From Afipia sp. GAS231 (GTDB taxonomy: Bacteria > Pseudomonadota > Alphaproteobacteria > Rhizobiales > Xanthobacteraceae), in NCBI RefSeq assembly GCF_900103365.1, contig NZ_LT629703.1, forward strand, positions 6,992,501 to 7,056,500: a stretch of DNA of 64,000 nt, read 5' to 3'. The notes below the pieces were generated by a model. It was not told the origin of the DNA and ran no database searches. It was given only the letters and a program-made list of their open reading frames with translations. This document shows positions 45,372 to 49,166 of the stretch, one piece after another. Within the stretch, counting starts at the first letter, position 1. Every line of letters starts with the position of its first letter. The translations under genes were made by a program, and so were the position numbers.

Positions 45372-45410
45372 GTCGCCCGGCGGCCCTGCCAGAACGATGG
45401 ATTGTTGCCG

Positions 45411-46058
45411 ATGCTGATGCGCTGGTTTCGTGCCTTCCTGCCCAAGGAAGAGCGGTTTTTCGAGCTGTTTGACCGCCATGCCCAGACCGTCGTGCAGGGC
45501 GCAACGGCATTGCAGGACATGCTGCGCGGCGGCGACGAGACGCCGGTGTTCTGCCAGCGCGTCAACCAGTTCGAGAACGAGGCCGACGGCATCACCCGCG
45601 AAGTGCTGACCGCCGTCCGCCGCACCTTCATCACCCCATTCGACCGCGTCGACATCAAGAACCTGATCACCTCGATGGATGATGCCATCGACCAGATGCA
45701 GCAGACCGCAAAGGCGGTGGTGCTGTTCGAGGTCCGCACCTTCGAGCCGCCGATGCGCGAGATCGGAACCTTGCTGGTCGAATGCGCCAACCTGGTCGGC
45801 CGCGCGTTGCCGCTGATGCAGTCGATCGGCGAAAACGTCGCGATGCTGACCGCGATCACCGAAGAACTCGGCAAGCTGGAAGGCCGCGTCGACGACCTCC
45901 ACGATATCGGGCTGAAGGAGCTGTTCCTCAAGCATCGCAATGCCAACGCCATGGATTTCGTGGTCGGCGCCGAAATCTACAAGCACCTCGAAAAGGTTGC
46001 GGACCGGTTCGACGACGTCGCCAACGAGATCAACAGTATCGTCATCGAACAGGTATAG
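45411..46058 (+). CDS. DUF47 (PhoU-like) Pit accessory protein
   Basis: 215 residues, helical PhoU-like protein, cytoplasmic. Features: FFELFDRHAQTVVQGA, FENEADGITREVL, FITPFDRVDIKNLI and EIYKHLEKVADRFDDVANEIN. Such proteins accompany Pit transporters and modulate phosphate uptake. ATG 45411 is used; ATG 45417 and a TTG at 45402 are alternatives. It is 14 bases ahead of pit, in the orfA-pit arrangement of rhizobia, behind a Pho box. Confidence 0.92.
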   Translation: MLMRWFRAFLPKEERFFELFDRHAQTVVQGATALQDMLRGGDETPVFCQRVNQFENEADGITREVLTAVRRTFITPFDRVDIKNLITSMDDAIDQMQQTAKAVVLFEVRTFEPPMREIGTLLVECANLVGRALPLMQSIGENVAMLTAITEELGKLEGRVDDLHDIGLKELFLKHRNANAMDFVVGAEIYKHLEKVADRFDDVANEINSIVIEQV

Positions 46059-46072
46059 GGCAGGGCCGCGCA

Positions 46073-47077
<1,005 letters not shown>

Positions 47078-47392
47078 TCAGGTGACCAGCTTGAGCCCCA
47101 CGATGCCGGCAACGATCAGACCGATGCTCGCCAGGCGAAGCCCGGAAGCCGGTTCGCCGAACAGGAAGATGCCGAGTATCGCCGTTCCCACAGCGCCGAT
47201 CCCGGTCCATACCGCATAGGCGGTTCCGATCGACAATGTTTTCAGCGCCAATCCGAGCAGGAGCACGCTTCCGGCCATGGCCGCGAGCGTCAGGACCGAC
47301 GGGGTCAGCCGCGTAAAGCCTTCGGTGTATTTCAGGCCGACGGCCCAGCAGATTTCCAGCAGACCAGCGGCAAACAACACAGCCCACGCCAT
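47078..47392 (-). CDS. SMR-family guanidinium exporter (SugE/Gdx)
   Basis: 104 residues, four membrane helices, small multidrug resistance family. Central Glu13 lies in [18 protein letters not shown], which is the SugE/Gdx rather than EmrE pattern; Gdx proteins exchange guanidinium for protons. The gene is preceded by a guanidine-II-type riboswitch, which independently supports this function. ATG 47392 is used; the longer frame to 47488 runs through the riboswitch. Confidence 0.93.
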
Positions 47393-47461
47393 GACGAACC
47401 CTTCATTTACAGGCAGGGTCGTCCCCGCGGATGATGTGCTGATCGGAAGGCCGTCCTTCCG
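47393..47461 (-). promoter_or_regulatory. Guanidine-II (mini-ykkC) riboswitch
   Basis: On the minus strand two hairpins with ACGR loops: CGGAAGG-ACGG-CCTTCCG (47461-47444, seven pairs) and GCGGGG-ACGA-CCCTGC (47428-47413, six pairs with one G-U), joined by 15 bases. The ribosome-binding region GAAGGGTTCGTC lies at 47404-47393 just before the ATG. GACGACCCT of the second hairpin (47423-47415) can pair with AGGGTTCGTC, giving a mutually exclusive structure that would hide the ribosome-binding site. Ligand binding should favour the hairpins and allow translation. Confidence 0.9.
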
Positions 47462-47546
47462 CCCCGGATATGGGGCTTGCACCGGCATGGCGCAATTGCC
47501 AAATCACCCTTGATTGCGCCGGTTTTCCCTGCCAAACGCTCGCTTC

Positions 47547-49166
47547 ATGTCCGACATCGCTGTTCCCATCGAATCGCCGTCCCGGTCGCCGCTTTCAGAC
47601 GAAGTGGCGCGGCGGCGGACCTTTGCCATCATTTCGCATCCTGACGCCGGCAAGACCACGCTGACTGAAAAGCTGCTGCTGTTCGGCGGCGCCATCAACC
47701 TGGCCGGCCAGGTCAAGGCCAAGGGCGAACGGCGCAATACCCGCTCCGACTGGATGAAGATCGAGCGCGAGCGCGGCATCTCGGTCGTGACCTCGGTGAT
47801 GACGTTCGAATTCCAGGACCTCGTCTTCAACCTCCTGGACACACCGGGCCATGAGGACTTTTCGGAAGATACTTACCGGACGCTGACTGCGGTCGACTCC
47901 GCGGTCATGGTGATCGACGCCGCCAAGGGCATCGAGGCGCGCACCCGAAAACTGTTCGAGGTGTGCCGGTTGCGCGACATCCCGATCATTACCTTCATCA
48001 ACAAGATGGACCGCGAGAGCCGCGATACCTTCGATCTCTTGGACGAGATCGAAAAGACGCTGGCGCTCGACACCACGCCGATGACCTGGCCGGTCGGCCG
48101 CGGCCGCGACTTCCTCGGCACCTATGACGTCATCAATGGCGGCGTGCGGCTGCTGGAAGGCGGCGGCGCCAAGACTGGTGCTGCGCAACAGATCGACATC
48201 GCCGAACTCGCCGGCCGCAACGCCAATCTCGACGTCGCCGAGATCAAGGACGAGCTGGCGCTGGTGTCGGAAGCCTGCAAGCCGTTTGACCTCGCGGCAT
48301 TTCGCGAAGGCCATCTGACGCCGGTCTATTTCGGCAGCGCGCTGCGCAATTTCGGCGTCGGCGATTTGCTGGAAGGTCTCGGCAAGTTCGCGCCGCCGCC
48401 GCGTGCGCAGGATTCCAACCTGCGCAAGGTCGAGGCCGCCGAGCCGCGCATGAGCGCCTTCGTGTTCAAGATCCAGGCCAACATGGATCCGAACCACCGC
48501 GACCGCATCGCATTCGCGCGGCTGTGCTCGGGCAAGCTCGTTCGCGGCATGAAGGCGAAGCTGGTGCGCACCGGCAAGAACATGTCGCTGTCGTCGCCGC
48601 AATTCTTCTTCGCCCAGGATCGCTCGGTGGCGGACGAGGCGTTTGCCGGCGACGTCGTCGGCATTCCCAACCACGGCACCTTGCGGATCGGCGATACGCT
48701 GACCGAGGGCGAGGACATCACCTTCGTCGGCGTTCCCTCCTTTGCGCCGGAAATCGTTCGCCGCGTCCGCCTAACCGATGCGATGAAGGCCAAGAAGCTG
48801 AAAGAAGCGCTGCAGCAGATGTCGGAAGAGGGCGTGGTGCAGGTGTTCCGGCCGCGCGACGGCGCGCCGGCGCTGGTCGGCGTCGTCGGCCCGCTGCAGC
48901 TCGACGTGCTCAAGGCCCGGCTCGACGCGGAATATTCGCTGCCGGTGGAATTCGAAGTTTCGGAATTCCAGCTGGCGCGCTGGATTTCCTCCGACGACCG
49001 CAAGAAGCTCGACGCCTTCGTTGCCGCCAACAATTCCGGCATCGCCGACGACGTCGACGGCGACCCGGTCTTCATGGCCAAGAACGAATTCTATCTCGGC
49101 TACACCCGCGAGCGCGCCGAGGGCATCAATTTTTCGAACGTCAAGGACGTGAAGAAAAAGGCGTAG
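47547..49166 (+). CDS. prfC: Peptide chain release factor 3
   Basis: 539 residues, translational GTPase that recycles RF1/RF2 from the ribosome. G1 is SHPDAGKTTLTEKLL, G3 DTPGHEDFSEDTYRTL and G4 NKMDRESRD; the RF3 C-terminal domain ends around FLGYTRERAEG. ATG 47547 matches the family start; the frame is open to 47514. Monocistronic. Confidence 0.96.
   Translation: MSDIAVPIESPSRSPLSDEVARRRTFAIISHPDAGKTTLTEKLLLFGGAINLAGQVKAKGERRNTRSDWMKIERERGISVVTSVMTFEFQDLVFNLLDTPGHEDFSEDTYRTLTAVDSAVMVIDAAKGIEARTRKLFEVCRLRDIPIITFINKMDRESRDTFDLLDEIEKTLALDTTPMTWPVGRGRDFLGTYDVINGGVRLLEGGGAKTGAAQQIDIAELAGRNANLDVAEIKDELALVSEACKPFDLAAFREGHLTPVYFGSALRNFGVGDLLEGLGKFAPPPRAQDSNLRKVEAAEPRMSAFVFKIQANMDPNHRDRIAFARLCSGKLVRGMKAKLVRTGKNMSLSSPQFFFAQDRSVADEAFAGDVVGIPNHGTLRIGDTLTEGEDITFVGVPSFAPEIVRRVRLTDAMKAKKLKEALQQMSEEGVVQVFRPRDGAPALVGVVGPLQLDVLKARLDAEYSLPVEFEVSEFQLARWISSDDRKKLDAFVAANNSGIADDVDGDPVFMAKNEFYLGYTRERAEGINFSNVKDVKKKA

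What the first reader, a model, noticed from the sequence alone, without database searches (positions are those of the whole stretch)
47393..47461. Guanidine-II riboswitch with a visible translation-control switch
Two hairpins with ACGG and ACGA loops precede a SugE/Gdx gene on the minus strand. The loop and 3' arm of the second hairpin (GACGACCCT) can pair instead with the ribosome-binding region (AGGGTTCGTC), nine pairs with one bulge. So both the ligand-bound and the masked state can be read from sequence, and the riboswitch supports assigning the exporter to guanidinium. The riboswitch class is known; the switch model is my inference.
Basis: partly seen in the sequence, partly recalled or inferred. 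Interest (0 to 1): 0.7.

Follow-up and report, generated by a model that had tools for sequence, protein, structure and literature searches.

The report
Guanidine riboswitch masking gdx start
A known type of RNA switch that senses guanidine sits in front of a guanidine-export gene, and part of its ligand-binding hairpin is complementary to the gene's ribosome landing site, a masking design kept in many relatives but not yet tested by experiment.

Summary
Confirmed. Window 47462-47414 (-) scores as Rfam Guanidine-II (37.8 bits, cut-off 32), directly upstream of a SugE/Gdx gene (47078-47392). Alone it is only modestly improbable (7 of 229 control start sites do as well); conservation makes the case. 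In the genus (Bradyrhizobium by inference) 50 of 67 gdx leaders have a strong P2-to-RBS duplex (control 2.5%); 0 of 9 leaders of another gene with the same riboswitch do. Outside the genus 14 of 70 SMR leaders have it (control 5.0%), in 10 of 27 families. Against: no compensatory double changes in the genus, and P1 is the predicted masking partner in 14 of 69 leaders against 50 of 69 for P2. Huang et al. 2017 already proposed exclusive P2/RBS pairing for Gloeobacter, so the kind of switch is known; comparative support and its restriction to SMR genes are added. Side result, possibly newer: 23 SMR leaders have a P1 hexaloop C[CA]ACG[ACT]; none of the 23 reaches Rfam's cut-off.

The parts
47414..47462 (-). 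Guanidine-II (mini-ykkC) riboswitch aptamer, P1 + linker + P2
   Evidence: RF01068, 37.8 bits, cut-off 32
47444..47461 (-). P1 hairpin: 7-bp stem, loop ACGG 47454-47451
   Evidence: sequence; paired in the minimum-energy fold
47413..47428 (-). P2 hairpin (ON state): 6-bp stem with one G.U, loop ACGA 47422-47419
   Evidence: sequence; 67 of 67 aligned genus gdx leaders form all six pairs
47415..47423 (-). anti-RBS: P2 loop and 3' arm, GACGACCCT
   Evidence: pairs with 47402-47393 in the minimum-energy fold; conserved in relatives
47393..47402 (-). masked ribosome-binding region AGGGTTCGTC (SD-like GAAGGG 47404-47399 plus spacer)
   Evidence: sequence; complement of P2 loop and 3' arm with one bulged T
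47078..47392 (-). gdx/sugE, 104 aa, SMR-family guanidinium exporter (predicted)
   Evidence: NF008512 SugE 145.7 bits, cut-off 126; Pfam PF00893; best solved relative 6wk5_B, E 1.5e-29 (that 6wk5 is Gdx-Clo is recalled); E13, W16, S42, Y59, W62 present

Best explanation
A translational ON switch of the guanidine-II class controlling a guanidinium exporter. Without guanidinium, the P2 loop and 3' arm pair with the SD and the spacer up to the start codon, in a local hairpin that needs P2 to be open; P1 stays folded. With guanidinium, P1 and P2 both fold and their ACGR loops kiss around two ligands, which takes away the very nucleotides that mask the RBS, so gdx is translated. Shown here: aptamer, gene, complementarity, conservation against controls, predicted folds. 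From the literature: ligand binding and kissing in relatives. Inferred: that masking by P2 is the main OFF state here, and that ligand shifts it. The large predicted energy gap suggests the choice is made during transcription, before the RBS emerges, rather than at equilibrium.
For: RF01068 hit. P2 x RBS duplex <= -14 kcal/mol in 50 of 67 genus SMR leaders against 2.5% of control pairings and 3.3% of spacer-shuffled; 0 of 9 leaders of other genes in the genus (control 8.6%, so under one expected); 14 of 70 SMR leaders elsewhere against 5.0% and 4.3%; 2 of 53 non-SMR leaders elsewhere against 5.3% and 3.9%. NCGT in the 11 bases before the start in 46 of 67, 0 of 9, 19 of 70, 4 of 53, control 14 of 229. 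In the 67-leader alignment the SD-to-ATG spacer keeps 0.77 pairwise identity against 0.59 (linker) and 0.56 (P2-to-SD spacer). The nine masking pairs form in 95.5% of cells against 22.9-68.7% when slid. Free folding pairs the P2 loop C with the RBS at probability >= 0.5 in 50 of 69 leaders, window included. Of 9 gdx orthologues in genus genomes without an Rfam hit, 7 keep GGGTCGTC; none of 19 other SMR genes found in that search has it (read by eye). E. coli strain with a deletion over P2 has constitutively raised gdx transcript (PMC13064478, passages).
Against: No pair with changes on both sides inside the genus, so no covariation; the shuffle control does not discriminate because P2 hardly varies. 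In the window itself, shuffling only the spacer reaches the same energy in 843 of 5000 tries. P1 pairs with the RBS as well or better in many relatives and is the predicted partner in 14 of 69. Outside the genus the base facing loop R is not clearly matched: of 19 SMR leaders with NCGT, A with T 2, A with C 2, A with G 5, G with C 5, G with T 2, G with G 2, G with A 1. OFF is predicted 9.1 kcal/mol better than ON for the window, more than equilibrium ligand binding would easily repay (my judgement). The genus leaders are not independent. No experiment on this RNA.
Confidence: 0.65

Rival explanations
1. P1, not P2, masks the RBS: the P1 loop and its pyrimidine 3' arm (CCTTCC) pair with the RBS over a longer range, alone or in exchange with P2.
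For: P1 x RBS wobble-allowed runs of >= 10 pairs in 41 of 199 leaders against 0.5% in control; P1 duplex <= -14 in 53 of 67 genus SMR leaders against 5.9% of control; P1 loop paired with the RBS at probability >= 0.5 in 14 of 69 leaders, for example L059, L069-L073, L175.
Against: In the window the P1 duplex is weaker than P2 (-12.0 against -14.4) and the minimum-energy fold keeps P1 and opens P2. P2 is the predicted partner in 50 of 69. P1's 3' arm is itself SD-complementary: spacer-shuffled P1 duplexes reach -14 in 14.9%.
Confidence: 0.17
2. The RBS is masked by the 5' flank or the linker, as proposed for P. aeruginosa and E. coli.
For: Published models and P. aeruginosa mutants (PMC9561414, passages; PMC9094411, passages). 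In the same genus, leaders of DUF1989 genes can pair 5' AGCTCC with the SD GGAGC.
Against: In the window the 5' flank gives -10.0 and the linker -6.7 against -14.4 for P2; the linker is poorly conserved (0.59).
Confidence: 0.08
3. The complementarity is a frozen ancestral sequence without a role in switching.
For: The genus leaders are related and show no double changes; some orthologues keep the RBS mirror although P1 is damaged (L216, L218).
Against: Linker and P2-to-SD spacer have drifted while the RBS spacer has drifted less; enrichment recurs in SMR leaders of other families but not in leaders of other genes.
Confidence: 0.1

Closest known systems
Guanidine-II (mini-ykkC) riboswitch, Rfam RF01068
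   Same: Two GC-rich hairpins with ACGR loops, short linker, close to the start codon of an SMR gene; score over the cut-off.
   Different: Nothing found in the aptamer; only the expression platform is specified further.
Gloeobacter violaceus guanidine-II (Huang et al. 2017, PMC5486947, passages read)
   Same: Authors note a potential stem-loop overlapping P2 and the ribosome-binding site, exclusive with the folded riboswitch.
   Different: Stated there for one sequence; here compared with controls over 199 leaders, with the ligand loop itself as part of the mask.
E. coli sugE/gdx guanidine-II
   Same: Same class and gene; a strain with a deletion over P2 has constitutively raised gdx transcript (PMC13064478, passages read).
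   Different: Published models put the anti-SD in the linker (PMC9094411, PMC9300104, passages read). The eight f242 SMR leaders of the survey lack CGT before the start; that f242 is the family of E. coli is a guess.
P. aeruginosa guanidine-II (RelE assay, PMC9561414, passages read)
   Same: Translational ON switch, SD sequestered without ligand.
   Different: Sequestration by a P0 helix of flanking sequences, not by P2.
SMR exporter 6wk5 (recalled to be Gdx-Clo)
   Same: Full-length alignment; by my residue count E13, W16, S42, Y59, W62 shared.
   Different: Transport by the window's protein not tested; the call labels 6wk5 only as an SMR-family multidrug resistance protein.

Membership tests
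Guanidine-II riboswitch (RF01068) | Covariance-model score over the curated cut-off | tested here: met
   37.8 against 32 bits
Guanidine-II riboswitch (RF01068) | Two hairpins, each with an ACGR loop closed by G-C | tested here: met
   ACGG and ACGA, both closed by G-C
Guanidine-II riboswitch (RF01068) | Upstream of a guanidine exporter or guanidine-metabolism gene | tested here: met
   SugE/Gdx, 21 bases after the end of the aptamer hit
Guanidine-II riboswitch (RF01068) | Conserved upstream of orthologous genes | tested here: met
   matches in 71 of 149 relatives; 67 distinct genus SMR leaders
Guanidine-II riboswitch (RF01068) | Binds guanidinium, cooperatively, with loop kissing | not testable with these tools
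   needs in-line probing
P2-to-RBS translational masking | P2 loop/3' arm complementary to the RBS beyond chance in orthologues | tested here: met
   50 of 67 against 2.5% and 3.3% controls
P2-to-RBS translational masking | Compensatory changes between P2 and RBS | tested here: inconclusive
   0 double changes in 67 leaders, P2 nearly invariant; one case by eye outside the genus, in the 3' arm (L076)
Gdx (guanidinium-exporting SMR) | SugE/Gdx model and W16 | tested here: met
   NF008512 145.7 over 126; W16, described as conserved in Gdx but Gly or Ala in Qac (PMC7695847, passages)
Gdx (guanidinium-exporting SMR) | Guanidinium/proton antiport | not testable with these tools
   needs a transport assay

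The most novel reading that the evidence does not exclude
SMR exporter genes have evolved the RBS as an antisense copy of the ligand-binding loop, so that sensing and masking compete for the same nucleotides, while other genes with the same aptamer use other platforms; and in another SMR group the P1 loop has become C[CA]ACG[ACT], an undescribed guanidine-II variant (23 leaders, none over Rfam's cut-off) whose changed pocket either senses a different guanidino compound or serves only as kissing partner.
Probability: 0.35. Interest if true: 0.7.

Novelty: new member of a known kind. Interest (0 to 1): 0.42.

Why it matters
Published models place the anti-SD of guanidine-II riboswitches in different parts of the leader in different species. 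A conserved design in which the ligand-binding loop itself is part of the anti-RBS can be tested directly and would explain how so small an aptamer controls translation. The hexaloop variants offer a second test: whether the class has changed its ligand.

Tried and rejected
Covariation of P2 with the RBS inside the genus: not found. Covariation of loop R with the RBS base outside the genus: not clear. Linker or 5'-flank masking in the window: weaker. A second guanidine sensor in the genome: no Guanidine-I hit in the own genome and one Guanidine-II; classes III and IV were not searched genome-wide. Reading every loop-RBS match as switching: rejected, since non-SMR leaders are at control level. 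Promoter and terminator scan of 47380-47560: one promoter-like site on the plus strand, nothing on the minus strand. Of 210 loci from the RF01068 searches, 199 distinct leaders were counted; dropped were seven that my parser could not read (L021, L088, L105, L106, L136, L141, L188) and four identical leaders (L013, L014, L103, L192). Gene starts were chosen by script; four leaders stayed unassigned (L084, L091, L092, L147). The folding set of 69 holds the 67 genus leaders plus L087 and L179. Part of my control start sites come from the same loci or genus as the test set.

Literature limits: Sherlock 2017, Reiss and Strobel 2017, Focht 2023 and Weinberg 2007 are not held, so the P2/RBS idea or the loop variants may be in them. 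Paper searches that touched the question.

Full report
WHAT IS THERE. On the minus strand a divergent intergenic region separates prfC (start 47547, peptide chain release factor 3) from a 104-aa SMR gene (47392-47078). It holds the window's one Rfam gathering hit, Guanidine-II, 47462-47414, 37.8 bits. P1 has loop ACGG, P2 loop ACGA. The SD-like GAAGGG (47404-47399) is followed by TTCGTC and ATG.

THE GENE. SugE equivalog score 145.7 over a cut-off of 126, closest solved structure 6wk5 (E 1.5e-29; recalled to be Gdx-Clo). E13, W16, S42, Y59 and W62 are present. W16 is described as conserved in Gdx and Gly or Ala in Qac proteins (PMC7695847, passages). The guanidinium assignment therefore does not rest on the riboswitch alone. 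Transport is not tested.

SURVEY. RF01068 was searched in 149 relatives (71 with matches), 385 genomes of the class (39) and 398 of the phylum (84), with filters that lose some weak matches. These gave 210 loci, of which 199 distinct leaders were read: 137 SMR, 25 DUF1989, 21 carboxylase, 12 PACE, 4 unassigned (classes assigned by similarity to the window's protein or by sequence motifs, examples of each checked in Pfam).

COMPLEMENTARITY AGAINST CONTROLS. Duplex energy of P2 loop and 3' arm with the 16 bases before the start, at <= -14 kcal/mol: genus SMR 50 of 67; genus other genes 0 of 9; other SMR 14 of 70; other non-SMR 2 of 53. With the same P2 segments, 227 control start sites gave 2.5%, 8.6%, 5.0% and 5.3%, and spacer-shuffled own sites 3.3%, 0%, 4.3% and 3.9%. 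The genus sequences are related, so 67 is not 67 independent cases. The 14 other SMR cases fall in 10 of 27 families: f207, f118, f24, f20, f233, f45, f259, f89, f237, f260. A simpler count, NCGT within 11 bases before the start, gives 46 of 67, 0 of 9, 19 of 70, 4 of 53 and 14 of 229 controls; Fisher 3e-25 for genus SMR, 7e-6 for other SMR, 0.45 for other non-SMR. For the window alone the signal is modest (see the observation check).

CONSERVATION PATTERN. In the alignment of 67 genus gdx leaders the linker (0.59 pairwise identity) and the P2-to-SD spacer (0.56) drift, P2 is 0.99, SD 0.96 and the SD-to-ATG spacer 0.77. Exactly GGGTCGTC is present in 29 of 67; 13 of 67 carry an extra base, as the window does. 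The nine masking pairs form in 95.5% of cells, 22.9-68.7% when slid; no pair changes on both sides. The 23 G.U cells at the fourth pair are partly an effect of gap placement in leaders with the extra base. P2 itself is invariant except G.U to A.U in two leaders. It keeps a G.U wobble whose U would pair with an A of the SD in the OFF state; that this explains the wobble is my inference.

NATURAL CONTROLS. In 21 genus genomes without an Rfam hit (not all such genomes), 17 have SMR genes. Nine orthologues (79-88% identity) keep a recognisable leader; 7 of 9 keep GGGTCGTC. None of the 19 other SMR genes found there (50-70%) has it (read by eye). In the same genus the DUF1989 leaders have another possible partner, AGCTCC upstream of P1 with the SD GGAGC (7 of 9 at -10.0 kcal/mol, L001 and L050 weaker).

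FOLDING. Free folding of 69 leaders (67 of the genus plus L087 and L179) pairs the P2 loop C with the RBS at probability >= 0.5 in 50 of 69 and the P1 loop C in 14 of 69. Mean SD unpaired fraction is 0.08 free and 0.29 with P1 and P2 enforced, so the SD is partly paired even then; the enforced state is a median 6.7 kcal/mol worse, 9.1 for the window. These energies contain neither the kissing loops nor the ligand. A gap of that size points to a kinetic decision during transcription; that is inference.

P1 AS RIVAL. P1's loop and 3' arm pair with the RBS over 10 or more positions, wobble allowed, in 41 of 199 leaders. In the window P1 is weaker than P2 (-12.0 against -14.4) and stays folded. 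A mixed or exchanging mask is possible.

LITERATURE. Huang 2017 (PMC5486947, passages) says of G. violaceus that a stem-loop overlapping P2 and the RBS could form and would exclude the folded riboswitch. E. coli papers place the anti-SD in the linker (PMC9094411 and PMC9300104, passages). P. aeruginosa uses P0 (PMC9561414, passages). A review speaks of the RBS being held in the apo aptamer and freed by ligand (PMC10907184, passages). An E. coli strain with a 20-bp deletion over P2 has constitutively raised gdx by RNA-seq, the deletion being the presumed cause (PMC13064478, passages), as expected if P2 is needed for OFF. So the kind of mechanism is known or proposed; the gene-specific comparative support is what I add. 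I did not see the latter in the listings of searches or in the passages read, with key papers not held.

SIDE RESULT. A pattern scan for P2 plus mirrored RBS in named genomes returned 119 stretches (the scan stopped at its limit): 61 with canonical P1 and an SMR gene, 12 with an SMR gene and a P1-like hairpin with hexaloop C[CA]ACG[ACT], 6 SMR without an intact P1, 1 canonical P1 without SMR, 39 neither. A model of the 12 (R1) hit 7 of 385 class and 21 of 398 phylum genomes. Among its 25 loci, 11 more hexaloop leaders before SMR genes were found by script and three looser ones by eye (L359, L363, L376); six had a canonical P1 (L360, L373, L375, L377, L380, L382) and five could not be read (L362, L364, L378, L379, L381). 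None of the 23 (12 + 11) reaches the Guanidine-II cut-off in direct scans (9, L321, 13); L374 alone has a sub-threshold match, 21.6 bits against 32, reaching from its linker to P2. In the alignment of the 23 three P1' stem pairs change on both sides (1 of 500 shuffles does as well; slides +1 to +3 give 1-2), but the outermost of these is unpaired in 15 of 23 and the other two rest on one sequence each, so covariation support is thin. On a tree of 96 SMR proteins all 22 variant rows lie outside a clade of 59 canonical rows (99/87), mixed with 12 canonical rows, at least 7 changes (the bootstrap had not settled). In the crystal structure the G before the loop is the floor under guanidine and A7, C8, G9 form the pocket and the kissing pairs. 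The variant puts C[CA] between that G and A7 and, as defined by my search, never has G at position 10, so the pocket should differ while ACG could still kiss. A 2025 paper on vertebrate aptamers says that hairpins departing from the consensus might partner with a consensus hairpin to form one pocket (PMC12335538, passages). The loops of this class were called less rigidly conserved in 2010 (PMC2864571, passages). Ligand unknown. In the R1-found set the P2 x RBS duplex is <= -12 in 6 of 11 against 18% of control pairings, a weak signal.

VERDICT. A genuine guanidine-II riboswitch of the ordinary class before gdx, with a well-supported though untested P2-to-RBS mask.

Noticed in passing
L255, L259, L275, L290, L298, L302, L305, L309, L316, L321, L342, L357, L358, L361, L365-L372, L374: 23 SMR leaders with canonical P2 but a P1 hairpin with hexaloop C[CA]ACG[ACT]; none reaches Rfam's Guanidine-II cut-off. 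Clustered outside a large canonical SMR clade.
   Followed up: partly
L028, L035, L049, L097, L099, L107, L140, L159, L199, L201, L202, L204: Guanidine-II riboswitches before PACE-type efflux genes (12 of 199 leaders, 8 families, motif-assigned; L049 checked: PF05232, NF033664). A paper search for PACE with guanidine riboswitch listed 11 papers, none of which by its listing treats this; only the hit in PMC12186494 was looked at, an author name. Possible guanidinium export by PACE proteins.
   Followed up: no
L001, L004, L005, L007, L011, L012, L018, L019, L050: Same genus, DUF1989 gene (L011 checked: UAAP1 model) with guanidine-II: possible masking partner is the 5' flank AGCTCC with the SD GGAGC, the GGAGC being repeated in the linker in most; a different platform from gdx.
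   Followed up: partly
L211, L216, L218, L219, L268, L272, L319: Bradyrhizobium gdx leaders with a damaged P1 (loop ACGC, ACGT or lost, or mispaired stem) or damaged P2 (L219), the others with P2 and mirrored RBS intact; these may be stuck OFF or decaying.
   Followed up: no
   Followed up: no
window 45402-47077 (+): TIGR00153-like gene (below its cut-off) and a PHO4-family phosphate transporter run convergent to gdx.
   Followed up: no
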